Source: Gluconobacter wancherniae NBRC 103581 (lineage in GTDB: Bacteria; Pseudomonadota; Alphaproteobacteria; Acetobacterales; Acetobacteraceae). From it: DNA of 64,000 nucleotides. Where the stretch lies: positions 124,001 to 188,000 of the forward strand of contig NZ_BJUZ01000001.1 in NCBI RefSeq assembly GCF_007988885.1, given 5' to 3'. The notes beneath the pieces were generated by a model that did not search any database, was not told the origin of the DNA, and saw only the letters and a program-made list of their open reading frames with translations. The translations under genes were made by a program, and so were the position numbers. Shown here in pieces: positions 37,617-52,695 of the stretch; position 1 is the first letter of the stretch; each line of letters begins with the position of its first letter.

Positions 37617-38036
37617 TTAGATCGTGCTGAGCATCAGGCTGGTTTCCGAGTTTAATACGCCGTCAATCATTCTTACCTCCCGCAGTACCCTATCGAAATT
37701 TTCAAGCGTGTCGGTACGTATTTCTGCAATGAGATCCCATGCGCCGTTTGTTGTATGCAGTGCGTGCAGTTCGGGCACGGCTCGGAGAGATCTGATGACC
37801 GTTGTGGTGGATTTTCCTGCCACCTCAATCAGCATAATGGCGCGGATGGTATCGTGGTTTTCACGGGCGCGCACCGTAAACCCCAGAATGGCTCCGCTCT
37901 CCAGCAAGCGGTCCAGCCGAAGCTGAACAGTGCCTCGGGACACGCCGATTGCAGCAGCAAGTTTCGCGACCGGTGCCCGGCCATCCTGACGAAGTATGGC
38001 GAGCAACTGCCGGTCCAGCTTATCGAAAATATGCAT
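37617..38036 (-). CDS. Lrp/AsnC regulator divergent from ocd-ctlX
   Basis: A 139-residue feast/famine regulator. Seen: HTH (LDRQLLAILRQDGRAPVAKLAAAIGVSRGTVQLRLDRLLESG) and the RAM ligand domain (LHALHTTNGAWDLIAEIRTDTLENFDRVL). It is divergent from the ornithine cyclodeaminase gene over 126 bp that carry an inverted repeat and repeated ATAATCAT elements. By layout it controls ocd-ctlX, with an amino acid such as ornithine, citrulline or arginine as likely ligand. Confidence 0.92.
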   Translation of the reverse strand: MHIFDKLDRQLLAILRQDGRAPVAKLAAAIGVSRGTVQLRLDRLLESGAILGFTVRARENHDTIRAIMLIEVAGKSTTTVIRSLRAVPELHALHTTNGAWDLIAEIRTDTLENFDRVLREVRMIDGVLNSETSLMLSTI

Positions 38037-38061
38037 CTGACGATATGTACCTTATAGGGTA

Positions 38062-38121
38062 GCAATATGATCAAATTATCATAATAATATAATCATATTG
38101 CCAGTTAAAATAATCATTTTG
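38062..38121. promoter_or_regulatory. Lrp-type operator region between lrp and ocd
   Basis: GCAATATGAT (38062-38071) and ATCATATTGC (38092-38101) are perfect 10-bp inverted arms with a 20-base AT-rich spacer. The right arm is part of ATAATCATATTG, which recurs as ATAATCATTTTG 21 bp later (38110-38121), and a related ATTATCATAATA lies at 38075. Helically phased AT-rich repeats are typical of Lrp-family binding regions. Confidence 0.6.
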
Positions 38122-38162
38122 TTTGCGGATAATTCCTGCACGAACAAGGCAGGGGTGAGATT

Positions 38163-39179
38163 ATGGTCCAGTATGTTGGTGTGGAAAATCTTGTACGACT
38201 GGTTCGGCATGTCGGCATAAAAACATTTCTGCAGGAACTTGCAGGCTATATTGAGGATGATTTCCGCCGTTGGCCTGAGTTTGAGAAGGTTTCACGTATT
38301 GCCAGTCATTCCAGTGATGGTGTGATTGAACTGATGCCTACTGCGGATAGTGTTTTGTATGGCTTCAAATACGTCAATGGCCACCCGAAAAACACGCGTG
38401 AAGGTTTGCAGACAGTCACTGCTTTTGGCGTTCTATCTGATGTAAATACCGGCTATCCGCTCCTACTTTCCGAAATGACACTTCTTACAGCACTGCGAAC
38501 GGCAGCGACGTCCGCTGTTGCAGCGCGGCATCTGGCGCGATCTGACAGCCGTGTCATGGCGATTATTGGTCTGGGCGCGCAGTCCGAATTTCAGGCAACG
38601 GCTTTTCAGGCTCTTCTGGGGATTACGCATCTTCGTGTTTATGACGTGGACCCCGATGCTGCCCGCAAATTCTGTGCAAATATGAACGACAGCGGCTTGG
38701 TAATTGCGGTGGCCGGAAGCAGCCATGAAGCTGTTCAGGGTGCTGATATCATCACCACAGTCACGGCCGACAAGCTTAAGGCCACCATTTTGACGGACAA
38801 CATGATTGGTGCTGGTGTTCACATCAATGCTGTTGGCGGCGATTGCCCCGGAAAAACGGAGCTTCATGCTGATATTCTAAGCCGTGGACGGGTCTTCGTG
38901 GAATTTCCGGAACAGACCCGGATTGAAGGCGAAATCCAGCAGATGCCGGAAGATTTCCCGGTAACTGAACTCTGGCACGTCATGACCGGTGAGGCGCCTG
39001 GACGTCGCACTGAGCAGGACATCACGATTTTTGATTCCGTGGGATTTGCCACGGAAGATTTTTCGGCGTTGCGATATCTGCGAGACAAAGTGCGGGATAC
39101 GGATTTTCAGGTTGAAATAGACCTTGTTGCAGAACCCAAGGATCCCCGTGATCTGTTTGGTCTGCTGACGCGGTACTGA
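38163..39179 (+). CDS. ocd: Ornithine cyclodeaminase
   Basis: A 338-residue enzyme of the OCD/mu-crystallin family that converts L-ornithine to L-proline and ammonia with NAD. Seen: SDGVIELMPTADSVLYGFKYVNGHPKN with the substrate Lys and Arg region, LLSEMTLLTALRTAATSAVAA, the Rossmann motif IIGLGAQSEFQ (about 137-147), and NAVGGDCPGKTELH with the catalytic Asp. The full-length VNGHPKN...GFGVLSD style fits true cyclodeaminases rather than ketimine reductases. ATG 38163 follows a GGGGTGAG site. ctlX follows after 30 bp on the same strand. Confidence 0.9.
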   Translation: MVQYVGVENLVRLVRHVGIKTFLQELAGYIEDDFRRWPEFEKVSRIASHSSDGVIELMPTADSVLYGFKYVNGHPKNTREGLQTVTAFGVLSDVNTGYPLLLSEMTLLTALRTAATSAVAARHLARSDSRVMAIIGLGAQSEFQATAFQALLGITHLRVYDVDPDAARKFCANMNDSGLVIAVAGSSHEAVQGADIITTVTADKLKATILTDNMIGAGVHINAVGGDCPGKTELHADILSRGRVFVEFPEQTRIEGEIQQMPEDFPVTELWHVMTGEAPGRRTEQDITIFDSVGFATEDFSALRYLRDKVRDTDFQVEIDLVAEPKDPRDLFGLLTRY

Positions 39180-39209
39180 TTTTTTCTGTTTGGATAGGAC
39201 ATATTTGGC

Positions 39210-40145
39210 ATGACGTCTTTTTCAGTGCAGGCCCCCAAAGCAGTGGTCATGATCCGGCCGCATCATTTTTATCCAAACCCGGAAACCGAACAGGACAATG
39301 TGTTCCAGAAGCGTGATGGAACACGCACTGCTCAGGCCATCGCCGAGCAGGCTTATGCAGAAGTGACACAGGCTGCGGAAAAACTGGAAGCCGCAGGTGT
39401 TGTCGTTCACATGTTCGAAGACGAGAGCAGAAAAACGCCGGACTCGGTTTTCCCGAATAACTGGTTTTCGACGCATGCGGGTGGTCATGTTGCGCTGTAC
39501 CCGATGTTTTCGCCAAATCGTCGCCTTGAGCGCCGTTCGGATGTGATCGAGATGCTTAAGCACAATTACCGTGTGCAGGATGTCATTGATTATTCGGGGC
39601 TGGAGCAGGACGGACTCTCGCTTGAGGGCACAGGGGCCATGGTGTTCGATCATATCAGCAGGATCGCTTATGCGGCAAAATCCAACCGCACCAATGAAGT
39701 GGCGATGGAACGCTTCTGCACGCATTTCAATTTTGAGCCGATTGTTTTCGATGCAGCGGATGAGGCCGGACAGCTCATCTATCATACCAATGTGCTGATG
39801 TGCGTTGGAACAGATTTTGCCCTGATCGGGCTTGATACGATCACCAACCCACGCAGGCGGGCAGAAATCCGCGATCGTTTGAGTGAGAATGGTCGCGAAA
39901 TCATTGATCTGTCTTTCTCCCAGATCAATGATTTTTCTGGAAACGCGCTTGAGCTTTCGGGATCGCAGGGGCGTGTACTCGCCTTTTCGCGTCGCGCTTT
40001 CAGGGCGTTGAGCGTCGAGCAGAAGCGGGCGATCGAGCGCTCTGCGACGTTATTGCCGCTGGAAGTGCCAACAATCGAGCTCGCGGGGGGATCGGTTCGC
40101 TGCATGATGGCGGGGGTGCATCTGACCCCACGGCCCGGTGCTTGA
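39210..40145 (+). CDS. ctlX: CtlX-type citrulline/arginine hydrolase
   Basis: A 311-residue member of the guanidino-group modifying superfamily, of the type called citrulline utilisation hydrolase CtlX, which gives ornithine. Seen: MIRPHHFYPNPETEQDN, the PDSVFPNNWFSTH signature, LEGTGAMVFDH, the catalytic His in IYHTNVLM and the C-terminal nucleophile in GGSVRCMMAG (Cys298). The pairing with ornithine cyclodeaminase predicts citrulline (or arginine) to ornithine to proline. The related cyanobacterial AgrE fuses an arginine dihydrolase domain to such a cyclodeaminase domain. Which guanidino or ureido substrate is used here cannot be told from sequence. Confidence 0.85.
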   Translation: MTSFSVQAPKAVVMIRPHHFYPNPETEQDNVFQKRDGTRTAQAIAEQAYAEVTQAAEKLEAAGVVVHMFEDESRKTPDSVFPNNWFSTHAGGHVALYPMFSPNRRLERRSDVIEMLKHNYRVQDVIDYSGLEQDGLSLEGTGAMVFDHISRIAYAAKSNRTNEVAMERFCTHFNFEPIVFDAADEAGQLIYHTNVLMCVGTDFALIGLDTITNPRRRAEIRDRLSENGREIIDLSFSQINDFSGNALELSGSQGRVLAFSRRAFRALSVEQKRAIERSATLLPLEVPTIELAGGSVRCMMAGVHLTPRPGA

Positions 40146-40153
40146 AAAGTACT

Positions 40154-40705
40154 TTATTCGGCGTTCTGGTAAGGTGGAAGAACGTGAAAATTACGATCAA
40201 ACCAAGCGAGCCCAGCGCCTATCTGGTTTGAATTCATAATGTTTTCGACCGTACAGTATAGAACGGAGTGCGTTCCGATTTCATGCATGTTGTTGATGCT
40301 GCAGACCAGTGTTGTGATTGCATCTGCAAGCACAGGCGCATGATTATGGGCGCGATGCCAGCTCCCGGATGCAAAGCGCTCCTCCATGGTCTTGCGGCTG
40401 CTGGCAAACAGCATCGCAATATCCTGATGCTCATGGCCCAAAATATTGATTGCGAGCGTCCCGTGTTCCCGCAACACGTCGTGAGAGCGTGTGGAGCGAT
40501 TGACGCAAACCAGCACAGTGGCTGGCGTGTCTGTCACGCTACAGACAGCTGATGCCGTCATTCCATGCGGCCCCAGCGGGCCATCGGTTGTGACGATCGT
40601 AACGGCTGCACTCAGACGCGACATGGCCTGACGAAAGTCATTGGCTGTGACGGCATTTCGTAAGTTGTTTGAAGGTGGAGCGTCCAGAAGTGTTTCTGAT
40701 GTCAT
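40154..40705 (-). CDS. Flavin reductase of the organosulfur operon
   Basis: A 183-residue member of the flavin-reductase-like family that makes free FMNH2 from NAD(P)H for two-component monooxygenases. Seen: FRQAMSRLSAAVTIVTTDGPLGPHGMTASAVCSVTDTPATVLVCVN (the usual N-terminal half) and the FASGSWHRAH segment. ATG 40705 lies 28 bp after the TauD-type gene. It is the last of six genes and most likely serves the two flavin monooxygenases at the head of the operon. It converges on ctlX with 8 bp between stops. Confidence 0.88.
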   Translation of the reverse strand: MTSETLLDAPPSNNLRNAVTANDFRQAMSRLSAAVTIVTTDGPLGPHGMTASAVCSVTDTPATVLVCVNRSTRSHDVLREHGTLAINILGHEHQDIAMLFASSRKTMEERFASGSWHRAHNHAPVLADAITTLVCSINNMHEIGTHSVLYCTVENIMNSNQIGAGLAWFDRNFHVLPPYQNAE

Positions 40706-40733
40706 GATGGTTCTCTGATTTCCTTTGGAGCTG

Positions 40734-41645
40734 TCAGTGGTCCAGCGCTTCACCTGAGTCTGGCCCGACGAGGAGGCGGCTTTTACGCCCGTCAACACTG
40801 ATGGGTGTGTCACCTTTCACGGTGATGCGGCGGAGTTCTCGTCTGTGTGTATCGAAATCTGCTACGGCGTAATGCTGGGTGGCGCGGTTGTCCCAGATTG
40901 CGATGTCACCCGGTGCCCAGCTCCAACGCACGGTGTTTTCAATCTGCGTGATGTAGGACTGGAAAATCTCGATGATCTTGTTTGCATCAAGGGTAGGCAA
41001 GCCTGACAGCCCTTTGACGAAATGTCCCAGGATAAGTGTTTTTTCGCCCGTCTCCGGATGGATGCGAACCACGGGATGTTCGGTTTCATAGATCTTGGAG
41101 ACGAAAGCTGCTCTGAATTCAGCAATTTCGTGTTTGTTGGCGTCGAATTTATAATAATTGGTGTCGTAATCGTTCCCGTGGATGGCCCACAGGGTGTCTG
41201 CAAGCAGCTTCAGAGGCTCTGGCAGGTCATCATATGCCGTGGCGGTATTGGCCCATGTGGTGCTGCCACCATAGGGCGGAATGACCAGCGCGCGGAGGAT
41301 TGAAGCCTTGGGGTATGCGGGCACGAATGTGACGTCCGTGTGCCATGAATCCGTTGATCTGCCGTTCTTGGATTTTAGCTCGAAGGTATATTTCGTACCT
41401 GTGGGAGCAGCGATTGTAGGGTGGAGGATTGGCTCCCCGAAAATGCGGCTGAATTTTTCGTGCTGCTCATCGTCCAGATGCTGATCACGCAGGAACAGGA
41501 CTTTGTGGCGGGCCAGCGCCTCTCGGAGATAGGTTTGCTGATCGGGCGGAAGATCGACGGAGGCGTCCACGCCATGGATGATGGCGCCGATGCGGGCTGT
41601 TACTTTTTCGGCGGAAAGGGCCGGATGTGAAAGCCGGTCGGACAT
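40734..41645 (-). CDS. TauD-family 2-oxoglutarate-dependent sulfonate/sulfate-ester dioxygenase
   Basis: A 303-residue Fe(II)/2-oxoglutarate enzyme that hydroxylates a carbon next to sulfur so that sulfite or sulfate is released. Seen: the iron ligands in SWHTDVTF (His102, Asp104) and NRATQHYAV (His258), and the oxoglutarate-binding Arg region THRRELRR (268-272). RIHPETGEKTLILGHFVKG is typical of the TauD/AtsK group. The length is slightly above TauD and fits the sulfate-ester enzyme AtsK equally well. It is the fifth gene of the sulfur operon. Taurine, alkanesulfonates and alkyl sulfates are all possible substrates. Confidence 0.9.
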   Translation of the reverse strand: MSDRLSHPALSAEKVTARIGAIIHGVDASVDLPPDQQTYLREALARHKVLFLRDQHLDDEQHEKFSRIFGEPILHPTIAAPTGTKYTFELKSKNGRSTDSWHTDVTFVPAYPKASILRALVIPPYGGSTTWANTATAYDDLPEPLKLLADTLWAIHGNDYDTNYYKFDANKHEIAEFRAAFVSKIYETEHPVVRIHPETGEKTLILGHFVKGLSGLPTLDANKIIEIFQSYITQIENTVRWSWAPGDIAIWDNRATQHYAVADFDTHRRELRRITVKGDTPISVDGRKSRLLVGPDSGEALDH

Positions 41646-41680
41646 GAGAACATTTCCTTCAGGGACGGGCAGTGTGCCTG

Positions 41681-42967
41681 TTATGCGGTTGCTGGCTGGA
41701 GTTTTTGGGGAAGTCTGATGAAGGCGGTCAGGAGCGCGCTGAGCAGAAACAGGCCCGCATAGATGTAGATGATGCCGATGGTCCCGACCGATGATTTGAA
41801 AAGATAGACAATGAACGGGCCAATCCAGGCACTGCTTCCTGCACCAAGATTGAGCAGAGACATCGCAATCCCCTGATTTTCAGGAAGGAGGGAGGGTGTC
41901 AGGGCAGAAAGTGGTACGTACCCGGCCAGTGTCATCCCAAACAGGGCTGCAGAGAGGTAAACGAGCGGAAGGCTGGTATGGGCATAAAGTGCAGGGAGCC
42001 AGTACATTCCAACGCAGGTCAGAGCGCTGCCGATACCACCAAACCAGATGATGGTTTTGCGCCAGGAAATGAAATCACTGACAAAGCCGATCACGAGATT
42101 GAAGATAATATTGCTTCCGAAAATGATTTCGAGAAAGCGGATCCAGTTGCCCGAAGTGAGGCCGAGCGTTGTTGTAAAATAGAACGGCATGAACACGATG
42201 ATGCCGTGTGCCGCGCTGGAATTGATGGCCCGTACCACGCAGGCCAGCCCCAGAGAGGGATTTTTGCGGACGAGCACGAGTGTGAGACCAAGGGTATCGC
42301 GAACGTCGTTCCAGCCAGCAGATGTGATGGCGGATTGATGACGCGTATGCCCCATATTGCTGAGGGCGATCACACCGCCGCTGGCTACGGCGAGCAGTGC
42401 AATCCACAGCGTGACGTATTGCCCGTAATGAGGCAGGAGCATTTCAGCGACAACCGATCCGAGCGTCGGTAGGCCGCAGGTAAAGCAGAACCAGAACAGC
42501 CCTACAGCCAGACCCAGACGTTTTTTCTCCACCGATTTTACGAGCAGTGTCAGTAGCCCGTATGCAAATAGTGGATATCCGGCACCTCGCAGCCCGTATG
42601 TCAGAAGCAGAAGGGCGTCTGAGTGCGATGGGATGGCGATGGAAAGGAAAAGAATCTGCGGCACCACCCATAAGGTGAGACCAGCCGTCATTATGGTTCT
42701 GCTGCTGAAAACATCGCAGAGCAGGCCCGAAAACCATGCACCGATGGCGGCAACGAGCCCATAGACCGTGAACATTAGAGCTACGAAATGTTCGGTCTGT
42801 CCAGCCGAGACGAGAAAGGGGGACAGGTAGCCAATCTCGACGCCATCTCCGATCATGAAGATTAGCAGCCCTAGATACTGCGCTGTAAATGTCTGGGGCC
42901 GGTAGCCTACCAAGGGTGGCACCAATTCTGGCGCCGGGGTGGAGAGGTGTTGGATCTGCTCTGACAT
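41681..42967 (-). CDS. MFS importer of the organosulfur operon
   Basis: A 428-residue inner-membrane carrier with twelve predicted segments. Motif A is seen as WFSGLLCDVFSSRTIM (after segment 2). RGAGYPLFAYGLLTLL recalls polyol permeases of the RbtT/DalT type. I chose ATG 42967; the first 24 codons of the longer frame run into the TBDR gene. The start is 4 bp after the TBDR stop, and the dioxygenase follows after 35 bp. By position it carries the compound that the TBDR brings into the periplasm, a job done in other sulfonate systems by the ABC importers SsuABC or TauABC. The substrate is inferred. Confidence 0.85.
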   Translation of the reverse strand: MSEQIQHLSTPAPELVPPLVGYRPQTFTAQYLGLLIFMIGDGVEIGYLSPFLVSAGQTEHFVALMFTVYGLVAAIGAWFSGLLCDVFSSRTIMTAGLTLWVVPQILFLSIAIPSHSDALLLLTYGLRGAGYPLFAYGLLTLLVKSVEKKRLGLAVGLFWFCFTCGLPTLGSVVAEMLLPHYGQYVTLWIALLAVASGGVIALSNMGHTRHQSAITSAGWNDVRDTLGLTLVLVRKNPSLGLACVVRAINSSAAHGIIVFMPFYFTTTLGLTSGNWIRFLEIIFGSNIIFNLVIGFVSDFISWRKTIIWFGGIGSALTCVGMYWLPALYAHTSLPLVYLSAALFGMTLAGYVPLSALTPSLLPENQGIAMSLLNLGAGSSAWIGPFIVYLFKSSVGTIGIIYIYAGLFLLSALLTAFIRLPQKLQPATA

Positions 42968-42971
42968 GGGA

Positions 42972-45389
42972 TCAGAAATCCGCGTGTACGGAGCCGAAAT
43001 ACTGCCGGGGAGCACCAAGCACGATGGACTGGTAATCACCGCTCATCGGATAGCCGTTCTGGCCCATCGTCGAGATGTATTTGACGTTCGTAACGTTATA
43101 GACGTTGAAATCTATGGACAGGTTATGGACAAAGCTGCTTGGGCTGAAACGGTGCAGCGTTTTAGTTAGGTCGTATCGGGCGCCTAGATTGGTCAGCCAG
43201 TAAGCCGGTACTTTCGTATCGCCGGTGTAGCTGAGGTTACGTTTGCCGACATATTGCGTTTCGATATGTGCGGAAGCGTCATGCCAGGTATAGGAAAGCT
43301 GTCCGCGATACATGAGTTGCGGATAAGCAACGACCTGCTGCCCCTTGATGTGATAGATGATCTGCTGCCCGTTGACGGTTGCAGGGACGTTGTCGCTGTA
43401 AGTCGCGTGGTTATAGCTGATGCTGTTGCTCAGGCTGAGGCCATGGATCGGAGTCAGTGTCAGTCCGGCATCCACACCATTCATCGCAACGCCGCCGACG
43501 TTTTTGATCGTGGTGTATGGGTTGGTGGTCGGGCCTGTGGAAATACGTTGCAGCCGGTTCGAGAAATCCGTGCGGTAAGCATAGAGCGAGCCGGAAACGA
43601 CTTTCCCCAGATAGCGATATCCGACGGCGTAGTTCCAGTCTGTTTCTGGTTGCAGACTGTTCCGCGAGGCTTCGAAAGCTGCTTGTGTGGTCGAAAGGGG
43701 AGACGTGCCGCTGTTGTACCCGGAAACCGGGTAGACTTTTACGTTCTCGGCAATATCGAAATAGAGTTGATGCCCTCTCGCAAAGCGCCATTCGCCACTG
43801 AAATGTGGAAGAAAGGGCTTACTGACGGACAGTGAATTTCCGCCCGAGAGTGCGGTCGTGCGTGTGTAAGGTTCCCAGTTGGCGAGAACGCCAACACGCG
43901 TGGTGTTCAGAACGGACCTGAACCCGGCATGCAGCGCGATGGTGTTTGTGATGTGGTACGTGTCCTGCACGTATCCTACGAACGTATTGGTGTTGAATAC
44001 CTGCTCGTACATGCGTTGGAAGGGCGTGCCCAGATTGCTCAGGCCGTTGACGGGCGTTGCCGTCCCGTTGAGCACATCTGCCAGAAGTGGCTCGGAATAC
44101 GCCAGTTTGTTGACGTCAAAATGGGTGTTTTCATACCAGACGCCCGCGTTGAGGGCATGTCGGGCAATTGTGTAGGATAGCGAGGAGCGCAGGCCGAAGC
44201 GGTTTGTATCGGGCTGGGTCACCTGATCGATCAGCGGCGCGCCGGTTGGAGAGTCCAGAAGCGGGCTTGCGACTGATCCACGCTGGAAAGAGCGATGCCC
44301 ATAAAATGTGGACTGCCAGCGCAGGCGATCTGTCAGTGCGAGGTCGGATGTAACACCGCCCATGTAAGAATGCTGAAGCTGGGCGCCTTCGTAATAGGAC
44401 GCGGTGTAAGGGCTTTTGAGTTTTGCATATGCCGCAGGTACTTCCCCGCCGGGAAGACCACGCTCCGCCAGTGCAATGCGATAGGCCGTTTCGTAACCGT
44501 TCTTTGTGCCGATCAGGTTATCGATGGCGTAACCACCGTTGTTGAACATATCGAGGCTGTAATCCTGATAGTTCTGCATCTCCAGATCCGCATAATCGAA
44601 GAAGCCGGTAATTTTGCTGCTTTCTCCGATGGGGTGCAGGATTTTGGCATTCACCTGCTGCATGAACTGGTCCTGCCCGCCGCGCCACTTATCTGTGTCG
44701 TTGCGTGCGTAGGAGACATAAAAGCGGGTGCCCTGCTTATTCAGGTCACCGCTGTCTACGCGCACAAACGTCCGATACATGGAATTGCTGCCAAATGTCT
44801 GGTTTATGGTGCCACCGCGATGGTGCGAGGGATCGCGTGAGACGAACTGGACGGTGCCACCGAGATTGGACGTGCTGGCCACGCTTTCGGAGCCTGTGGA
44901 GGCCGAAACATCTATGCGGTCAATATTCTCGGACGAAATGGCGGATGTGGGGCTGAGGCCATTGACGTTGCTGAATTGCTGGTCGCCAAGAGGCATGCCG
45001 TCGAGCGTCATTCCGATCTGGCTCTGGTCGAAACCATGCATCAGAAACGAGTTCTGCCAGGTGTTGACGCCCTGTGGATCACCGGAATTAAATAGAACGC
45101 CAGGCAGTGTTGTCAGCGCTTTCAGCGCATTAGTTCCCGCGACGTAATTCTGGATGGTTTGCGCTGATACGGGGTTGGAGACCCAGTTTGCCTGACGGCG
45201 CCCTTCGACCCCGATCGTTTCCGCCCCCTGCGCACGAACGTGCAGGGGATGGTGGCGCGCAACGGACTTTTTTACGGCCGTTTCATCGATATTTTTTGCG
45301 GGTGCTGCAACGGCAATGCCAAATGAGAGGGACGCGGCAACGGTGAAGGAGACGCCATAGCTACGCGCTCGGAAAGTGGAACGGTTCAT
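42972..45389 (-). CDS. TonB-dependent receptor of the organosulfur operon
   Basis: An 805-residue outer-membrane receptor. Seen: signal peptide (about 1-29), a plug from about residue 60 (GVEGRRQANWVSNPVSAQTIQNYVAG and FDQSQIGMTLDGMPLGD), a barrel with YNVTNVKY near the end and a C-terminal aromatic (HADF). It is third in an operon with desulfurisation enzymes: 49 bp after the DszA-type gene and 4 bp before the MFS gene. Active outer-membrane import suggests a ligand too large or too scarce for porins, for example an aryl or alkyl sulfate or sulfonate. No iron genes are in the unit. TBDRs in sulfur-starvation operons are known in pseudomonads and xanthomonads. Confidence 0.9.
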   Translation of the reverse strand: MNRSTFRARSYGVSFTVAASLSFGIAVAAPAKNIDETAVKKSVARHHPLHVRAQGAETIGVEGRRQANWVSNPVSAQTIQNYVAGTNALKALTTLPGVLFNSGDPQGVNTWQNSFLMHGFDQSQIGMTLDGMPLGDQQFSNVNGLSPTSAISSENIDRIDVSASTGSESVASTSNLGGTVQFVSRDPSHHRGGTINQTFGSNSMYRTFVRVDSGDLNKQGTRFYVSYARNDTDKWRGGQDQFMQQVNAKILHPIGESSKITGFFDYADLEMQNYQDYSLDMFNNGGYAIDNLIGTKNGYETAYRIALAERGLPGGEVPAAYAKLKSPYTASYYEGAQLQHSYMGGVTSDLALTDRLRWQSTFYGHRSFQRGSVASPLLDSPTGAPLIDQVTQPDTNRFGLRSSLSYTIARHALNAGVWYENTHFDVNKLAYSEPLLADVLNGTATPVNGLSNLGTPFQRMYEQVFNTNTFVGYVQDTYHITNTIALHAGFRSVLNTTRVGVLANWEPYTRTTALSGGNSLSVSKPFLPHFSGEWRFARGHQLYFDIAENVKVYPVSGYNSGTSPLSTTQAAFEASRNSLQPETDWNYAVGYRYLGKVVSGSLYAYRTDFSNRLQRISTGPTTNPYTTIKNVGGVAMNGVDAGLTLTPIHGLSLSNSISYNHATYSDNVPATVNGQQIIYHIKGQQVVAYPQLMYRGQLSYTWHDASAHIETQYVGKRNLSYTGDTKVPAYWLTNLGARYDLTKTLHRFSPSSFVHNLSIDFNVYNVTNVKYISTMGQNGYPMSGDYQSIVLGAPRQYFGSVHADF

Positions 45390-45438
45390 TGGTTTTAACC
45401 CGAAAAGACAGTGTTAATTGGAGGCAGGTCTTTTTGAT

Positions 45439-46848
45439 TTACGAGTTCGGGCAACAGCGTGATGGATGGCTTGTGGCTGGAATTCCGGAGGCCAGCCCGG
45501 GGAATAAATTCTGGCGTAACGTGCCCGCTGCCTGCGGACGGATGCGCCCACGGCTGCGCAGTTCTGGAAGAACGAGGCGGGCAAAATCCAGATAGCTGTC
45601 TGGATTGACAATCTGGATCAGGTTGATGCCATCGGTTTCCGAAGCTTCGAGCCAGCTTTCGATCTGGTCAGCAACGGCTTTCGCATCGCCCACGAATGTC
45701 CGTGCACGCCCAAAGCCTTCCTTGGGGCTTGTCGCTTCCGCAAGCGTCCAGGAGCGCCCGCTTTTGGCAGGATCGAACTGGCTAAGCACGGACTGGCTTG
45801 CTTCGGTCTGGCGGTATGTGACGACATTGTCTGTTGGCGTCTGCGAAAAATCTACACCCGTCATGGAGGAGTAGTGGATGATCGAGCCGATCGGATCATA
45901 CCAGGTCTTGTAATCCCGGAATTTTTCCAGCGCCTCGGCTTCGGTTTCACCCACGACCACCGCTGCAGCTGAAATGAATTTCAGGGACGCAGGATCACGG
46001 CCGAGCTTTTCGGCTTCCTCGCGGATCTTGCGGACATTGGCTTTTGTTCCGGCAGCATCCGCGCCGACTACAAATATAACTTCGGCGTGTCGTGCGGCGA
46101 AGTCTATGCCGCGCGCTGATGCGCCTGCCTGTAGAATGACCGGAACGCGCTGGGGGCTGGGCTCCGAAACATGGGCGTCCGGTACGCGGAAATATTTGCC
46201 GTCGTGGTGGATCGGGTGAACCTTGCCGGGGTCTGTATAAACCCAGTTTCCGCTGCCAGCGGGGGACTGATCACGGATAACCGCGTCATTTTCCCACGAA
46301 TTCATCCAGAGTTTGTAAACAACGTCCATGAATTCATCGGCGCGTTCGTAACGTTCGTCATGCGGAATCTGGCGTTCGAGGCCGAGATTGCGCGCAGCAC
46401 TTTCCTGCTGGGACGTAACAACATTCCAGCCCATGCGGCCCTTCGTCAGATGGTCCAGCGTCGTGAGTTTTCGGGCCAATTGATAGGGGTGTTCGTAGGT
46501 GGTGGAAAGTGTGATGCCAAAACCTAGAGACTTTGTCGCAGCTGCCATTGCCGAGACCAGCATCAGTGGATCGATCAATGGCGATTGGATGCCATGCTTC
46601 AGTGCTGGAGCCGGGCTGTTGCCATAAACATCGATCTGTCCCAGCGCATCTGCGATGAACAGGCAGTCAAACCCCTCCCGGTCCAGAAGCTTGGCAAGAT
46701 CAACCCAGTAATCGACATCTTTGTATCTGTGGGTTTGGTCGGCCGGGTGTCGCCACAGGCCGTAATTGAGGTGCGAAACAGTGGCCATGGTGAATGCATT
46801 GAGCACCATGTATCGATCACGCGATGTGTTCGGAGTGGGGGAAGTCAT
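45439..46848 (-). CDS. DszA/NtaA-type FMNH2-dependent monooxygenase
   Basis: A 469-residue bacterial-luciferase-like enzyme of the NtaA/SnaA/DszA family. Seen: YWVDLAKLLDREGFDCLFIADALG, TTYEHPYQLARKLTTLDHLTKGRMGWNVVTS (the family core), ARNLGL, ERYERADEFMDVVYKLW and GASARGIDFAARHAEVIFV. Such enzymes use FMNH2 and oxygen to cleave C-S or C-N bonds (DszA opens dibenzothiophene sulfone). I chose ATG 46848, which is 13 bp after the stop of the DszC-type gene. It works with the flavin reductase at the operon end. The real substrate is unknown. Confidence 0.88.
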   Translation of the reverse strand: MTSPTPNTSRDRYMVLNAFTMATVSHLNYGLWRHPADQTHRYKDVDYWVDLAKLLDREGFDCLFIADALGQIDVYGNSPAPALKHGIQSPLIDPLMLVSAMAAATKSLGFGITLSTTYEHPYQLARKLTTLDHLTKGRMGWNVVTSQQESAARNLGLERQIPHDERYERADEFMDVVYKLWMNSWENDAVIRDQSPAGSGNWVYTDPGKVHPIHHDGKYFRVPDAHVSEPSPQRVPVILQAGASARGIDFAARHAEVIFVVGADAAGTKANVRKIREEAEKLGRDPASLKFISAAAVVVGETEAEALEKFRDYKTWYDPIGSIIHYSSMTGVDFSQTPTDNVVTYRQTEASQSVLSQFDPAKSGRSWTLAEATSPKEGFGRARTFVGDAKAVADQIESWLEASETDGINLIQIVNPDSYLDFARLVLPELRSRGRIRPQAAGTLRQNLFPGLASGIPATSHPSRCCPNS

Positions 46849-46861
46849 CGTGCGGATGCCC

Positions 46862-48097
46862 TTACGAAGACAGGCCAACGCGCCACTGTTCGGGCGGAGG
46901 CGTTCCATTGACAGCGTAATCACCCACTACGCGCGTGCGATAAACGCGAGGGTTGTGCCCTGCAATTGTGCGGACGTTGCGCCAATGTCGATCAAGCCCG
47001 GCTGAACGAAGCGTCGCAGCGCCGCTCAGTGCGTCGAACAGCAGGCTGGCTGCATTGAGAACCAACGGCAGAACCTGATCCTGAGCCTGCCAGACTTCAA
47101 GCTCTGCACGTACCACAGCATTTTCGCGCTCGTCTTCGGTGCTGTCATAAACGGCCTGCAAGGCGCATGATGCACTGGAGACAACGGCCCCCGCGACATA
47201 CGCGCTGCTGCAAACACGCCCTACGATCTCCAGGATCTGTGGGTCCTGTGCGGGAAGATCGGCGTTTCCGTGGCTAAAGCCGCGTTTGCGGCGCTTGACT
47301 GCTTCGGAAATATCCGTGGCGGCAGCGCGGGCAATGCCTGCCACGGTAGCCAGATGATAAAGCTGGAAGAAAGCCTGCGAATATGGGAACGCGACGTTGC
47401 CAAAGCGGATGTCGTCGCTATCTGCCAGAACGTTCCGGAAGTGTGCGGTGCCGCTTGCGGTCAGCCGCTGTCCCACACCGTCCCAGTCATCTACGATATC
47501 CAGACCTGGGTCACGGCGTGCTGCGAGGCATTTCGCGGTCTGACCGTCATGGGTGGTTGCTGTGACGGTCAACCAGTCCGCATAGAGCGATCCTGTTGTG
47601 AAGAACTTGCTACCGTTGATGACCCAGCGACCGTCCTTTTCTTCAAGGATGGTGCTGAACTGATCACGTTTCGAACCGCCTCCTTCTGCCGCCGCCGCAC
47701 CGGCAGTTTCTCCCGCTCCCAGACGGATAAGCCATTTTGTGCGATAGGCGCTTTCCGGTTCGGAAAGGAGATGCTCAACGAAGCCGAAATGCGCACGGAG
47801 CGCCTGTGCAACGTTGGAATCTGCCGAACCGAGTTCTGTAATGAGCGCCAGAAGCTCTGTCAGTGTTGCGCCACTGCCACCAAATTCGACAGGAACGCGA
47901 AGGGCCGTGAAGCCTGCGTCCTTGAGGGCCTGTAGAGGCACGAAAGGCAGAACGCGGTTGAGCTCTGCATCCAGGGCATTGTCGCGGATCTTTTGGAACA
48001 GTGCCGCGTAAGTGGCCCTGAGCTGAGGATAGCGCGCAGTTGGCCCTGCACCCCAGAGGCTTTCGAGCTTCTGGGATCGTAGAGAAATATTGGACAT
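46862..48097 (-). CDS. DszC/SfnB-type acyl-CoA-dehydrogenase-fold monooxygenase
   Basis: A 411-residue flavoprotein with the acyl-CoA dehydrogenase fold, of the group that includes DszC and SfnB, used in sulfur acquisition. Seen: FTALRVPVEFGGSGATLTELLALI, WVINGSKFFTTGSLYADWLTV, and the C-terminal HNPRVYRTRVVGDYAVNG, which is characteristic of these monooxygenases; fatty acid enzymes have a catalytic Glu there. It oxygenates sulfur or a carbon next to it with FMNH2. It is the first gene of the six-gene operon. Confidence 0.88.
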   Translation of the reverse strand: MSNISLRSQKLESLWGAGPTARYPQLRATYAALFQKIRDNALDAELNRVLPFVPLQALKDAGFTALRVPVEFGGSGATLTELLALITELGSADSNVAQALRAHFGFVEHLLSEPESAYRTKWLIRLGAGETAGAAAAEGGGSKRDQFSTILEEKDGRWVINGSKFFTTGSLYADWLTVTATTHDGQTAKCLAARRDPGLDIVDDWDGVGQRLTASGTAHFRNVLADSDDIRFGNVAFPYSQAFFQLYHLATVAGIARAAATDISEAVKRRKRGFSHGNADLPAQDPQILEIVGRVCSSAYVAGAVVSSASCALQAVYDSTEDERENAVVRAELEVWQAQDQVLPLVLNAASLLFDALSGAATLRSAGLDRHWRNVRTIAGHNPRVYRTRVVGDYAVNGTPPPEQWRVGLSS

Positions 48098-48529: not shown

Positions 48530-48982
48530 CTATAAAGGAAGTTCATTGTTTGACTTTACTTCTTCCATCACTGTGTAGGTATGAGTTTGTCGAATACCAG
48601 GCAAACGCGTAAGCGTTTTGCCAAGGAAATTGCGATAGGCATTCATATCGCGCACGCGTGCCTTGATGAGGTAGTCGAACCCCCCTGCCACCATGTGGCA
48701 TTCGCTGATCTGGGGAATGGATTTTATGGCTTTTGAAAAGTCATCGAAAATTCCCGGGCTTGTCCTGTCGAGGGTCACTTGCACAAACACGAGCAGACCT
48801 AATTGAAGGGCGTCTGGGTCCAGCTTGGCCATGTATCCGCGGATGATACCTGTCTGTTCAAGCTTGCGAACGCGCTCAAGTGTGGCGGCTGGGCTAAGAT
48901 GGATCAGGCGGGAAAGTTCCAGGTTCGTGATCCTTCCATCCTGTTGTAAACGAACGAGAATTTTTTTATCGACGTCGTCCAT
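48530..48982 (-). CDS. Lrp/AsnC regulator divergent from putA (PutR-like)
   Basis: A 150-residue feast/famine regulator. Seen: VDKKILVRLQQDGRITNLELSRLIHLSPAATLERVRKLEQTG (HTH) and the RAM domain with CHMVAGGFDYLIKARVRDM. ATG 48982 has GAGGG 6 bp upstream; an ATG at 49048 would add 22 residues encoded by the operator region. It diverges from putA, and in alphaproteobacteria PutR of this family activates putA when proline is present. Two identical palindromes lie in the gap. Confidence 0.92.
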   Translation of the reverse strand: MDDVDKKILVRLQQDGRITNLELSRLIHLSPAATLERVRKLEQTGIIRGYMAKLDPDALQLGLLVFVQVTLDRTSPGIFDDFSKAIKSIPQISECHMVAGGFDYLIKARVRDMNAYRNFLGKTLTRLPGIRQTHTYTVMEEVKSNNELPL

Positions 48983-48998
48983 GAGTGCCCTCAGTGCA

Positions 48999-49040
48999 GA
49001 ATTTAATTCGAAAAAATACGAGGTTACTGAATTTAATTCG
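48999..49040. promoter_or_regulatory. Twin GAATTTAATTC palindromes between lrp and putA
   Basis: GAATTTAATTCG occurs at 48999-49010 and again at 49029-49040. Each is a perfect 11-bp palindrome around a single base, and their centres are exactly 30 bp apart, close to three helical turns. They lie between the two divergent starts and are the obvious candidate binding sites of the Lrp-type regulator. Confidence 0.65.
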
Positions 49041-49122
49041 TTCATCATAATGATATTCGATGTTTAATTTTTCATAAGTCACGATAGAGCGGAGATGAAA
49101 ATTTTTCCCGGATCGATCTGTA

Positions 49123-52100
49123 ATGACACAGCCTTTTTCGACCTTGCAGACTGCGGTGCCTGCGCGTTCCTCTCTTCGTCAGACCATTACGGCAAACACG
49201 CGCGTTCCTGAGGCGTCGCGTGTTGTAGCACTCGCGTTGGAGGCGACGCTTCCGGTTGAATCCGTTCGTAATGTAAAGAACACGGCGCGCCATCTGGTGA
49301 AATCGCTCCGCACTGCCGGGGACACGGGATTGGTTCAGGGGCTCGTGCGTGAGTACGATCTTTCGACGCAGGAAGGTATTGCCCTGATGTGTCTGGCGGA
49401 AGCTTTGCTTCGCATTCCAGATATAGCCACACGGGACGCGCTAATTCGCGACAAGATAGGAGGCGCCAACTGGCGTGAGCATCTGGGTGCCGACAGTACA
49501 TTTTTTGTAAATGCTGCCACATGGGGGCTGGTTTTCTCCGGGCGTCTGCTTTCATCTCATGAACTGGACGGCGTTTCGGGGGCGCTGACAGGCCTGCTCG
49601 TGCGTTGCGGTGAGCCGTTGATCCGTCGTGGCGTCGATATGGCCATGCGTCTGATGGGCGAGCAGTTCGTTACTGGACAGACAATCGAACATGCTCTGAA
49701 GAATAGTCGGAAGTTCAATGAAAAAGGCTTCCGCTATTCATACGATATGCTTGGTGAAGCCGCGACGACAGCAGAAGATGCCGAGCGCTATTATCGTGAT
49801 TATGAGCAGGCAATTCACGCAATTGGTAAGGCGTCTGCGGGGCAGGGCGTTTATCGTGGACCAGGCATTTCGGTAAAGCTTTCAGCTCTGCACCCGCGCT
49901 ATAGTCGGCTTCAGCGTGCGCGTGTTCTAGAGGAACTTCTGCCCAGAGTTACCGAGCTTGCGCGTCTGGCTTGTGGCTATGACATCGGCTTCAATATTGA
50001 TGCCGAGGAGACGGACCGTCTGGAACTGTCTCTCGATCTTCTGGAGGCCCTTTGCTTTGATGAAGCGTTGCGGGGCTGGAAAGGCATTGGCTTCGTAGTT
50101 CAGGCTTACCAGAAGCGTGCACCATTTGTACTGGACTGGGTGATTGATCTCGCCCGGCGCAGCGACCATCGTCTGATGGTTAGATTGGTGAAGGGGGCTT
50201 ACTGGGATAGCGAAATCAAGCGCGCGCAGACGGACGGTCTAAGCGATTTTCCAGTATTTACGGTCAAAAACCATACCGACATTTCGTATATCGCCTGTGC
50301 CCGCAAACTTCTGTCTGTCCCACAGCAGATATTTCCACAATTCGCGACGCATAATGCCCAGACACTTGCGACGATCTACACGATTGCAGGTCCGGATTTT
50401 ACGGATGAAAGTTATGAGTTCCAGTGTCTGCATGGGATGGGTGAGGCGCTTTATCAGGAGGTCGTTGGCCCTGAAAAGATGAACCGCCCGGTTCGGGTTT
50501 ATGCACCTGTGGGGACACATGAAACGTTGCTCGCCTATCTGGTGCGCCGCCTGCTGGAAAACGGTGCCAATTCATCTTTTGTAAATCGTATTCAGGACGA
50601 GAACGTCCCCGTCGATACACTCATAGAAGATCCCGTTATGCTTGCCGGAGATTGCGCGGGCAATCCGTCCATCAGTCTGCCCGGAAACCTTTATCAGCCT
50701 GAGCGGTCCAACTCTCAGGGTTTGGATCTGGCGGATGAAGCCACGCTCCACGCCCTTGCGGATGTGCTTTCGGCTTCTCGTACATGGGGGGGTGAGGGCG
50801 ATCACGCTGTTCTTAATCCCGCTAATTTGCAGGATGTCGTGGGGCATATCGTGTTTGCCTCCGCGGAAAGCGTGGCAGAAGCAATCAGCACGGCAGAAAT
50901 AGCCTCGACGGAGTGGGGGGTGCTTTCGGCGGATCAGCGTGCGCTGTGTCTGGAAAAGGCAGCGGATGTTCTTGAGGACGAGATGCAGCCTCTCATGGGG
51001 CTGATCATTCGGGAGGCGGGAAAATCCTATGCCAATGCGGTAGCGGAAATCCGCGAGGCTGTTGATTTTCTGCGTTATTACGCGGCGCGCTCACGAGAGG
51101 TATTTTCTGAGCCCACATCGAAGCCTCTGGGCGTTGTGGCGTGCATCAGCCCCTGGAATTTCCCGCTGGCTATTTTTCTGGGGCAGGTTGCCGCCGCGCT
51201 GGCAGCGGGCAATGTGGTGCTGGCAAAGCCTGCCGAGGAGACACCACTCATTGCTCAGGAGGCTGTACGGATCCTGCATGAAGCTGGTGTTCCGGAATTT
51301 GCGGTGCAGCTTGTGGCGGGTGCTGGAAACGTAGGGGCACAACTCGTGCGTGATCCTCGGGTGGCGGGTGTTCTGTTTACCGGGTCTACAGAGGTTGCAC
51401 GCCTTATTCAGAAGCAGCTTGCTGACCGGCTTAATCCGGATGGAACTCCGGTTCCCCTAATTGCCGAAACAGGTGGCCAGAATGCCCTGATCGTGGATAG
51501 CTCGGCACTCTCCGAGCAGGTTGTCGCAGATACACTTTCCTCGGCTTTCGATAGTGCAGGTCAACGATGTAGCGCGTTGCGCCTGCTGTGTTTGCAGGAA
51601 GAAAGCGCGGATCGCGTGCTGACGATGCTCAAGGGCGCCATGACAGAGCTGAGCACTGGCAATCCGCAGCTTCTGTCGACTGATATCGGACCGGTTATTT
51701 CGTCTGAAGCACAGGCAGGCATCCTTCGTCATATCGAAGAGATGAGGGCCAAGGGCTATCGCGTGTATCAGGCTCCGCTGTCCGCGGGCTGTGAGGAAGG
51801 GATGTTCGTACCGCCCACACTCATTGAAATTCCGTCCATCGCTGTCCTGAAGCGGGAAATCTTCGGTCCGGTTCTGCATGTGGTGCGCTACCCACGTGCG
51901 GGGTTGGATCGTCTTATGGATGATATCAACGCGACGGGTTATGCGCTGACATTTGGTGTACATACCCGGATCGACAGGACCATCGCCCGCGTTACGGAGC
52001 GCACGCATGCTGGCAACGTTTATGTGAACCGTAATCTGGTCGGAGCTGTTGTGGGCGTTCAGCCCTTTGGTGGTCATGGGCTTTCAGGCACGGGCCCCAA

Positions 52101-52695
52101 GGCAGGTGGCCCGCTATATCTGAGGCGTCTTCTGGGCGTCTCTCCTCCGTTGCCGCTATCTCTGCGCCAGCCCCTGCCGTCCATTATGAGCATTTATACT
52201 GCGTGGATGCGGGAGCGTGAGGTCAGACCGTCTGCACCGGCGCTGACGAGCACGCCTTTAGGCACGGAGCTGACTCTTCCTGGTCCTGTCGGCGAGAAAA
52301 ACCTGTACAGTCTGTTGCCTCGGGGAAATGTTCTTTGTGCGGGTGGCTCTGCTGCATCGCTGTTGAGTCAGGCTGCGGCGGCACTTGCTACGGGCAACAG
52401 GGTGCTTGTGCTTCCGGAAATGTTTGACGCTTTTCCCAACCTCCCGGCGACACTTTCGGAGTGGATCCGTCCATTTGATCTGGCGGACCATATTGATGTC
52501 GCTCTGTGTTCACATGATGCGCCGGATTTACTGGCTCTGGGAAAAGTGCTTGCAAAGCGTACCGGACAGATCGTTACGCTGCATACCAACGATGATGGTG
52601 GTTCATATCGTCTGGAGGCTCTCGTTCTTGAACGTTGTGTCAGTACGAACACGACGGCGGCTGGCGGTAATGCCGCTCTGATGATGGTCTCATAG
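49123..52695 (+). CDS. putA: Bifunctional proline dehydrogenase / P5C dehydrogenase
   Basis: A 1190-residue PutA that oxidises proline to glutamate in two steps with substrate channelling, feeding electrons to quinones and NADH. Seen: PRODH barrel with [31 protein letters not shown] and [16 protein letters not shown] (about 354-369); aldehyde dehydrogenase domain with [13 protein letters not shown], the general base in [12 protein letters not shown] (Glu782) and the nucleophile in GQRCSALR (Cys816). A further 180 or so residues after the dehydrogenase correspond to the C-terminal domain of type B PutA proteins. There is no N-terminal ribbon-helix-helix domain, so it cannot repress itself as in E. 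coli; the divergent Lrp-type gene is the likely regulator. Confidence 0.96.

What the first reader, a model, noticed from the sequence alone, without database searches (positions are those of the whole stretch)
40154..48097. Six-gene organosulfur scavenging operon with TBDR and MFS carrier in place of an ABC importer
Seen: six minus-strand genes with gaps of 4-49 bp, in the order DszC/SfnB-type monooxygenase, DszA/NtaA-type monooxygenase, TBDR, MFS carrier, TauD/AtsK-type dioxygenase, flavin reductase. Known: these enzyme families release sulfite or sulfate from organosulfur compounds, and the flavin reductase supplies FMNH2. Inference: a self-contained route from outer membrane to sulfite that uses no SsuABC/TauABC-type importer. 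The combination of two different chemistries (flavin and 2-oxoglutarate) suggests either one complex substrate attacked twice or two substrate classes. I cannot name the substrate.
Basis: partly seen in the sequence, partly recalled or inferred. Interest (0 to 1): 0.85.

Follow-up and report, generated by a model that had tools for sequence, protein, structure and literature searches.

The report
Sulfur-scavenging operon without ABC importer
A Gluconobacter-type acetic acid bacterium carries a conserved gene set that most likely takes up an organic sulfur compound through an outer-membrane gate and a converted sugar-alcohol carrier and then strips the sulfur off with oxygenases; the parts are known, the combination looks new, and the compound is unknown.

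Summary
Their five-gene core (SfnB-like, NtaA/DmoA-like, TBDR, MFS, TauD/AtsK-like) is found together in 16 distinct loci of Gluconobacter, Acetobacter and two further unnamed genera of the family, in two arrangements. Organosulfur scavenging is well supported. The dioxygenase keeps the iron, 2-oxoglutarate and sulfo-group residues of TauD/AtsK but not the taurine-amine ones in 14 of 14 cassettes aligned. Relatives of the SfnB-like gene sit near ABC importers in 6 of 6 regions read. The carrier belongs to the polyol family RbtT/DalT/CsbX, with residues fixed in 15 of 15 cassettes and absent from 74 non-cassette relatives. The genome has no SsuA-family binding protein, but has other ABC importers beside other flavin monooxygenases and one ABC system without a binding protein. 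Most likely mechanism: TonB/MFS uptake, then a flavin, flavin and 2-oxoglutarate relay to sulfite. Substrate, transport direction, step order and regulation are inferred. New variant of a known kind.

The parts
46862..48097 (-). [quoted passage not shown]
   Evidence: Acyl-CoA_dh domains; SfnB model 247 bits, below its cut-off 430.9; nearest solved structures a probable monooxygenase (8cda), DszC and methanesulfinate monooxygenase; motif RTxxxHNPR in 15 of 15 cassettes
45439..46848 (-). NtaA/DmoA-family FMN-dependent group C (TIM-barrel) monooxygenase
   Evidence: TIGR03860 489 bits, cut-off 279.7; nearest solved structures dimethyl-sulfide monooxygenase and LadA
42972..45389 (-). TonB-dependent receptor
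   Evidence: Plug and beta-barrel domains; at 66% identity or more in 8 of 397 family genomes, all carriers of the cassette (two candidates scored per genome)
41681..42967 (-). MFS carrier of the RbtT/DalT/CsbX (polyol permease) family
   Evidence: TIGR00897 416.8 bits, cut-off 375; cassette-specific residues such as H254 and E280; model with mean pLDDT 86
40734..41645 (-). TauD/AtsK-like Fe(II)/2-oxoglutarate dioxygenase
   Evidence: TauD domain; best solved match AtsK E 1e-98; catalytic and sulfo-group residues kept, taurine-amine residues not
40154..40705 (-). flavin reductase (RutF/HpaC-like), probable FMNH2 supply
   Evidence: Flavin_Reduct domain; RutF 180.5 and HpaC 170.8 bits, both below cut-offs; same place after the dioxygenase in L208
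48098..48529 (.). 432-bp gap between the operon and the upstream Lrp-type gene, presumably with the promoter
   Evidence: Position only; promoter-like sites not above shuffled expectation; no 7-mer shared by 12 or more of 15 upstream regions

Best explanation
An organosulfur uptake-and-desulfurisation operon. The TBDR brings an organic sulfur compound through the outer membrane, and the MFS carrier, derived from polyol permeases, carries it through the inner membrane. The flavin reductase (its own or another of the cell) supplies FMNH2. The group D and group C flavin monooxygenases oxidise the sulfur and cleave a C-S bond, and the AtsK/TauD-like dioxygenase releases sulfite (or sulfate) from the sulfonated or sulfated product, which enters cysteine synthesis. 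Shown here: gene content, conserved core, family assignments, active-site residues of the dioxygenase, the carrier's family and its cassette-specific residues, no SsuA-family binding protein in the genome, and genes of sulfite and sulfate assimilation. Inferred: import direction of the MFS, the order of steps (most likely sulfide or sulfone to sulfinate to sulfonate to sulfite, on one substrate), the substrate, and induction by sulfur limitation.
For: Five-gene core in 16 distinct loci in two arrangements. SfnB-like protein at 60% or more in 5 of 299 and TBDR at 66% or more in 8 of 397 family genomes, in carriers only. Pairwise distances of the five proteins correlate at 0.95-0.99 (no species-tree control). 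Dioxygenase: Fe, 2OG and sulfo-group residues in 14 of 14 cassettes aligned (residue roles recalled). Relatives of the SfnB-like gene at 48-51% have NtaA/LLM monooxygenases and an ABC substrate-binding protein nearby in 6 of 6 regions read, with ssuD, cysE, msuE, a sulfonate-binding protein or a TauD-family gene in several. NIR_SIR, PAPS_reduct and SulP genes in the genome. No SsuA-family binding protein. A group D + group C + SsuD relay fed by one reductase is shown experimentally for dimethyl sulfide in Acinetobacter baylyi (PMC13352529, sections 18, 22, 29).
Against: No expression, growth or enzyme data. No sulfur-specific regulator or promoter was found. In the genus the cassette does not replace SsuA: an over-cut-off SsuA is in 2 of 8 carriers and 5 of 18 non-carriers. 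TBDR relatives at 32-56% sit with varied genes such as hut, bet, phospholipase and choline-sulfatase-like genes, which gives no sulfur-specific signal. Non-cassette relatives of the carrier sit by polyol genes. NtaA-family enzymes near this one include ones not acting on sulfur (LadA, hexachlorobenzene dehalogenase, riboflavin lyase). An ABC system without binding protein could import sulfonates.
Confidence: 0.75

Rival explanations
1. Two substrate classes under one promoter: the flavin monooxygenases desulfurise thioethers or sulfones, and the AtsK-like dioxygenase independently desulfates alkyl sulfate esters. This differs from the best explanation only in the wiring.
For: The dioxygenase is closer to the alkylsulfatase AtsK (52.3%) than to TauD (36.1%). 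In Pseudomonas sp. UW4 atsK sits with a TBDR in a sulfate-ester cluster without these flavin enzymes (PMC3596284, one passage).
Against: The three oxygenases, one TBDR and one MFS stay together in 16 distinct loci in two arrangements; two unrelated substrates would need one importer pair with broad specificity. Cassette dioxygenases differ from AtsK at pocket positions (S and T for R103 and A104, T for Y168).
Confidence: 0.3
2. The MFS is not the importer but exports a product (the desulfurised carbon remnant, or excess sulfite or sulfonate); the inner-membrane importer is encoded elsewhere.
For: MFS proteins can export sulfonates: YihP exports dihydroxypropanesulfonate (PMC12890257, one passage). 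The genome has an ABC system without a binding protein. In L005 and L207 (the same contig as L006) a TBDR with an ABC ATPase and permease lies beside the cassette.
Against: The family's named members are sugar-alcohol permeases, taken as importers from recall; the family fit is over the cut-off. The TBDR and MFS genes adjoin in the 8 loci with the Gluconobacter arrangement.
Confidence: 0.15
3. Chelator or siderophore use: the TBDR takes up a metal chelate and the NtaA-like enzyme degrades the chelator, as in nitrilotriacetate or EDTA degradation.
For: The NtaA family includes such enzymes; the TBDR has a weak match to the siderophore receptor model (97.5 bits, cut-off 223.5).
Against: Nitrilotriacetate and EDTA monooxygenases are the more distant solved relatives (E 4e-56 and 2.5e-45 against 2e-123 for dimethyl-sulfide monooxygenase). 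The SfnB-like and AtsK-like enzymes have no place in that pathway.
Confidence: 0.04
4. Oxidation of a compound without sulfur for carbon, for example an alkane, haloaromatic or flavin-like compound.
For: LadA, hexachlorobenzene dehalogenase and riboflavin lyase are among the nearest solved relatives of the NtaA-like protein.
Against: Three families that all have organosulfur members are joined in one cassette, and the dioxygenase keeps the sulfo-group residues.
Confidence: 0.06

Closest known systems
Pseudomonas ats/sft sulfate-ester cluster (atsACBR-sftR-atsK-sftP)
   Same: AtsK-type dioxygenase with a TonB-dependent receptor (SftP) in one organosulfur cluster (PMC3596284, one passage).
   Different: It has an ABC importer, an arylsulfatase and a LysR regulator; the passage names no MFS and none of these flavin monooxygenases.
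Dimethyl sulfide/sulfone assimilation (Dms1-3, SfnG, MsuC, SsuD, MsuE) in Acinetobacter and Pseudomonas
   Same: Series of group D and group C two-component flavin monooxygenases fed by one reductase, ending in sulfite (PMC13352529; abstract, passages and sections 18, 22, 29).
   Different: Sulfite is released by SsuD, a flavin enzyme; ABC genes ssuABC are shown in its gene map (legend); the word TonB does not occur in its main text. Here a 2OG dioxygenase stands in the place of SsuD.
Dsz (4S) desulfurisation, DszC and DszA
   Same: One group D and one NtaA-family group C monooxygenase acting on sulfur (passage for DszC; pairing with DszA recalled).
   Different: No desulfinase gene here; only distant similarity (DszC E 1.8e-28 to 3e-24; DszA 8e-70).
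Sulfoquinovose dioxygenase (sulfo-ASDO) pathway, SqoD
   Same: Iron/2OG dioxygenase that releases sulfite from a sugar sulfonate (PMC12890257, one passage).
   Different: No flavin monooxygenases in that pathway as described there, and no sugar reductase gene in this operon.
RbtT/DalT/CsbX polyol permeases
   Same: The carrier scores over the curated cut-off; 40-52% identity to relatives near polyol genes.
   Different: It sits with oxygenases and not with polyol enzymes, has H254 and E280 (15 of 15) where 0 of 74 relatives have a basic or acidic residue, and lacks R/K238 (74 of 74 relatives) and the near-fixed W141 and P147 (73 of 74 each).

Membership tests
AtsK/TauD-type Fe(II)/2OG sulfo-group dioxygenase | HxD...H iron ligands and 2OG-binding Arg/Thr | tested here: met
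   H99, D101, H255, R266, T126 (TauD numbers) in 14 of 14 cassettes aligned
AtsK/TauD-type Fe(II)/2OG sulfo-group dioxygenase | Sulfo-group residues H70, V102, R270 (roles recalled) | tested here: met
   All three in 14 of 14 cassettes aligned
Taurine dioxygenase TauD | Taurine-amine residues Y73, D94, N95 (roles recalled); NCBIfam taurine dioxygenase cut-off | tested here: not met
   I, S and T in 14 of 14; 221.3 bits against a cut-off of 313
AtsK/TauD-type Fe(II)/2OG sulfo-group dioxygenase | Release of sulfate or sulfite from a sulfate ester or sulfonate | not testable with these tools
   Needs enzyme assay
SfnB | NCBIfam SfnB equivalog cut-off | tested here: not met
   247 of 430.9 bits
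SfnB | RTHTLHDP C-terminal motif of the SfnB-annotated proteins seen here | tested here: not met
   RT[IL]xxHNPR in 15 of 15 cassettes; RTHTLHDP in the SfnB-annotated proteins of L116 and L117 (annotation)
NtaA/DmoA family FMN-dependent monooxygenase (TIGR03860) | Curated cut-off | tested here: met
   489 against 279.7 bits
RbtT/DalT/CsbX family MFS carrier | Curated cut-off | tested here: met
   416.8 against 375 bits
RbtT/DalT/CsbX family MFS carrier | Transports a polyol | not testable with these tools
   Context and cassette-specific residues suggest a changed substrate
Ssu/Tau sulfonate scavenging system | ABC importer with an SsuA/TauA binding protein | tested here: not met
   None in the operon; SsuA_fam 0 matches in the genome
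Ssu/Tau-like sulfur-starvation regulon | Induced when sulfate is limiting | not testable with these tools
   No expression data

The most novel reading that the evidence does not exclude
The cassette is a complete one-substrate desulfurisation line: a polyol carrier that evolved into an importer of a hydroxylated organosulfur compound (for example a thioether, sulfone or sulfo-derivative of a sugar alcohol from plants), followed by group D S-oxygenation, group C C-S cleavage to a sulfinate, oxidation to a sulfonate, and release of sulfite by a 2OG dioxygenase in place of SsuD. That would be a TonB/MFS replacement for the ABC-fed Ssu/Msu systems and a hybrid flavin/2OG sulfur-release pathway.
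Probability: 0.35. Interest if true: 0.7.

Novelty: new variant of a known kind. Interest (0 to 1): 0.5.

Why it matters
Sulfonate and sulfone scavenging is usually described with ABC importers and a flavin enzyme as the sulfite-releasing step. A conserved cassette that pairs a TBDR with a re-purposed sugar-alcohol carrier and, if the relay reading holds, ends in a 2-oxoglutarate enzyme would show another way to build the pathway, in bacteria that live on plant sugars. It gives a defined gene set and defined residues (H254 and E280 in the carrier, the I/S/T pocket in the dioxygenase) with which to look for the compound.

Tried and rejected
Rejected: taurine as the dioxygenase's substrate; SfnB proper; chelator degradation as the main role. 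The idea that the cassette compensates for a lost SsuABC is not supported within the genus: over-cut-off SsuA is in 2 of 8 carrier and 5 of 18 non-carrier genomes. The promoter and terminator scan gave nothing above chance (7 promoter-like sites, expected 5.8; 3 terminator-like, expected 9.6). No 7-mer is shared by 12 or more of 15 upstream regions. G+C is 0.54-0.59 inside the operon and 0.47-0.52 in the kilobases next to it, which decides nothing. Sequence searches of solved structures gave no match at E <= 0.001 for TBDR or MFS. The TBDR model failed (mean pLDDT 41.5) and was not used. The MFS model (mean pLDDT 86.1) gave only general MFS matches among the 50 rows listed; no model file was in the Python box, so whether H254 and E280 line the cavity is untested. 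Empty-site test: Ocd-CtlX-Lrp occurs in 3 other Gluconobacter genomes with no cassette gene or PutA match in the 16 kb fetched from each, so the cassette's place varies, but no exact empty site was found. A class-wide search (385 genomes, E <= 1e-90) found the carrier only in the own genome; this is a sparse sample with a strict threshold. Literature: searches listed no paper that by title, abstract start or opened passages treats such a cassette; several lists were cut (for example 10 of 388 papers), one search returned 0, and the library lacks most subscription journals.
Full report
OBSERVATION. The six genes exist as described: collinear on the minus strand at 40154-48097, no internal stops, gaps of 13, 49, 4, 35 and 28 bp when downstream in-frame ATGs are taken as starts. 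Pfam gives acyl-CoA dehydrogenase domains, Bac_luciferase, TonB receptor, MFS_1, TauD and Flavin_Reduct. The window lies in a 2.78 Mb genome of 9 contigs. Of the genomes in its genus (26 with it), two have contigs as long as named Gluconobacter records: L207 from G302 and L006, 180871 bases; L209 from G311 and L008, 279113 bases. So I take it as Gluconobacter in the GTDB sense; the species is unknown.

CONSERVATION. A scan of named genomes with the carrier kept the best 80 of 401 relatives. The 12 best (Gluconobacter L004-L009, Acetobacter L010-L015; 55-69% identity) all hold SfnB-like, NtaA-like, TBDR, MFS and TauD-like genes next to each other; the other 68 (52% or less) show no SfnB-like or NtaA-like gene at E <= 1e-8 in the DNA held, and some of these loci are short. 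With the window that is 16 distinct loci. In 8 (window, L004-L009, L208) the TBDR gene lies inside the row; in 8 (L010-L015, L150, L153) it is divergent. The flavin reductase is not part of the core: I found it joined in 5 of 16 (window and L208 after the dioxygenase; L011, L013 and L014 beside the TBDR) and on the opposite strand in L150; some loci end near the cassette, so this is a lower bound. Among 299 family genomes the SfnB-like protein at 60% or more occurs in 5, all carriers. Among 397 the TBDR at 66% or more occurs in 8, all carriers, and the next match is at 56%; only two candidates per genome were scored. Pairwise distances of the five proteins correlate at 0.95-0.99 over 105 pairs of loci, with no control for the species tree. 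In the genus 8 of 26 genomes have the cassette carrier at 69% or more. The window's Ocd-CtlX-Lrp neighbours occur in three other genus genomes with no cassette gene in the fetched 16 kb; two of these three have the cassette carrier on another contig. So the cassette's place varies.

CHEMISTRY. The dioxygenase is 52.3% identical to AtsK (residues as printed) and 36.1% to E. coli TauD. Iron ligands, 2OG residues and the sulfo-group residues H70, V102 and R270 (TauD numbers; roles recalled) are kept in 14 of 14 cassettes aligned; L013, whose gene runs to the contig end, was not in that set, nor was L208. The amine-binding Y73, D94 and N95 are I, S and T in 14 of 14. It should act on a sulfonate or sulfate ester other than taurine. 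The NtaA-like protein is nearest to dimethyl-sulfide monooxygenase and LadA among solved structures. The first protein is a sister of SfnB: 247 bits against a cut-off of 430.9, and RT[IL]xxHNPR in 15 of 15 cassettes; relatives at 46-53% have RTxxxHNP, while two SfnB-annotated proteins have RTHTLHDP and the DszC chains RTH(T/S)LHDP. The pattern matched nothing in 14 of the 68 rows, all distant. Six annotated plasmid regions with a 48-51% relative, chosen from the top ten of 606 matching records (Pantoea, Caballeronia, Shinella, Pararhizobium, Methylobacterium, Variovorax), have an ABC substrate-binding protein and NtaA/LLM monooxygenases nearby in 6 of 6, and in several also ssuD, cysE, msuE, MetQ-type, sulfonate-binding or TauD-family genes.

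TRANSPORT. The carrier is over the cut-off of the RbtT/DalT/CsbX family. Of ten neighbouring ORFs of non-cassette relatives, three match xylulokinase, one transketolase, one glycerol-3-phosphate dehydrogenase and one SAM hydrolase models; four have no match at E <= 1e-30. Two annotated plasmid regions show an alcohol dehydrogenase with dihydroxyacetone kinase, and two FGGY kinases. Compared with 74 non-cassette relatives, the 15 cassette carriers share H254 and E280 (15 of 15; among relatives 0 of 74 basic and 0 of 74 acidic), lack R/K238 (74 of 74 relatives), have L for W141 (73 of 74 relatives) and R, H or E for P147 (73 of 74). In the model H254 lies in helix 237-267 and E280 in helix 272-296. 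The own genome has a second family member (37%), and all 26 genus genomes have at least one match, so the cassette carrier is an extra paralog. TBDR relatives outside cassettes sit with varied genes, so the receptor gives no substrate.

THE GENOME. There is no SsuA-family binding protein. Sixteen ABC permease domains were found; I read the regions by ORF and scanned ten proteins. Among them are a MetNIQ-like system (MetI and MetQ below cut-offs) beside an MsnO8-type monooxygenase (L163), a Dpp-type system beside an NtaA-family paralog (L165), an amino-acid system (L169) and a tandem permease without a binding protein whose ATPase resembles SaoA, NitT, PhnT and TauB ATPases, all below cut-offs (L170). 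The last is the main caveat to 'no ABC importer'. Two PAPS_reduct-family ORFs, one NIR_SIR gene and one SulP gene are present, so sulfite and sulfate can probably both be used. In the genus the cassette and an over-cut-off SsuA are not exclusive: 2 of 8 carriers and 5 of 18 non-carriers.

MECHANISM. Best reading: uptake by TBDR and MFS, then oxidation by the flavin pair and release of sulfite or sulfate by the dioxygenase. The work on dimethyl sulfide in Acinetobacter baylyi (PMC13352529; abstract, passages and sections 18, 22 and 29) shows such a series: group D enzymes make sulfoxide and sulfone, a group C enzyme makes the sulfinate, MsuC can make the sulfonate (its deletion had no clear effect, and FMNH2 alone can do the step), and SsuD releases sulfite, all fed by one reductase. 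Our core has one group D and one group C enzyme and a 2OG dioxygenase where SsuD would be; release of sulfite from a sulfonate by a 2OG enzyme is known for SqoD (PMC12890257, one passage). That study's shared reductase also fits the reductase being the dispensable part here. The hybrid relay itself is inference.

COMPARISON. The nearest described cluster is ats/sft of Pseudomonas, with AtsK and the TBDR SftP but with an ABC importer (PMC3596284, one passage). The sulfur-starvation systems named for P. aeruginosa include ABC transporters (PMC12581299, passages). A Novosphingobium survey reports tauD in all strains without the taurine transport system (PMC5443232, passages), so such dioxygenases without their own ABC importer are not unique. 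An MFS carrier of a sulfonate is known in the export direction (YihP). My literature searches listed no paper on this cassette (limits in Tried and rejected).

VERDICT. Real, conserved, most likely an organosulfur cassette, and a new variant of a known kind. The surprising parts are the re-purposed polyol-family carrier and the mixed flavin/2OG chemistry; the missing part is the substrate.

Noticed in passing
L163:12273-15978 (own genome C1, about 950.3-954.0 kb): MetNIQ-like ABC importer next to an MsnO8-type LLM monooxygenase: a possible second organosulfur locus of the same genome.
   Followed up: partly
L165:3300-9549 (own genome C4, about 111.3-117.5 kb): An NtaA-family paralog (533 bits) starts a row with a Dpp/NikA-like binding protein and ABC genes: another possible flavin-dependent salvage locus, with an ABC importer.
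   Followed up: partly
L170:1839-4792 (own genome C1, about 1.228-1.231 Mb): Tandem ABC permease of 548 aa with a long ATPase (436 aa) and no binding protein seen beside it; its substrate is unknown.
   Followed up: partly
L207:5165-9094 and L005:9441-13364: Beside the cassette of two Gluconobacter species lies another row of a TBDR, an ABC ATPase and an ABC permease, so TBDR-fed uptake islands cluster there.
   Followed up: no
L210:3504-12355: A 53% relative of the TBDR lies between a phospholipase C-like gene, an X-Pro peptidase-like gene and a sulfatase with a choline-sulfatase C-terminal domain.
   Followed up: no
L202, L203, L204, L205: TBDR relatives of 54-55% lie near a HutD gene (Pfam match in L204; similar by eye in the others), and in L202 beside a purine/cytosine-permease-family gene, which suggests TonB-dependent uptake linked to histidine use.
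   Followed up: no
37617-40145: Ornithine cyclodeaminase and CtlX-type citrulline hydrolase genes with an Lrp-type gene on the other strand form a unit found in 4 of 26 Gluconobacter genomes; elsewhere it is not next to PutA or the cassette.
   Followed up: partly
L161:7870-16910 and L162:9030-15547: Two genomes of the same genus have other SfnB-like/NtaA-like rows (34-36% and 40-44% identity); the L161 row ends with an over-cut-off SsuA-family binding protein.
   Followed up: no
48530-52695: An Lrp-type regulator gene divergent from a 1190-aa PutA-like proline utilisation gene directly upstream of the operon; probably not its regulator.
   Followed up: no
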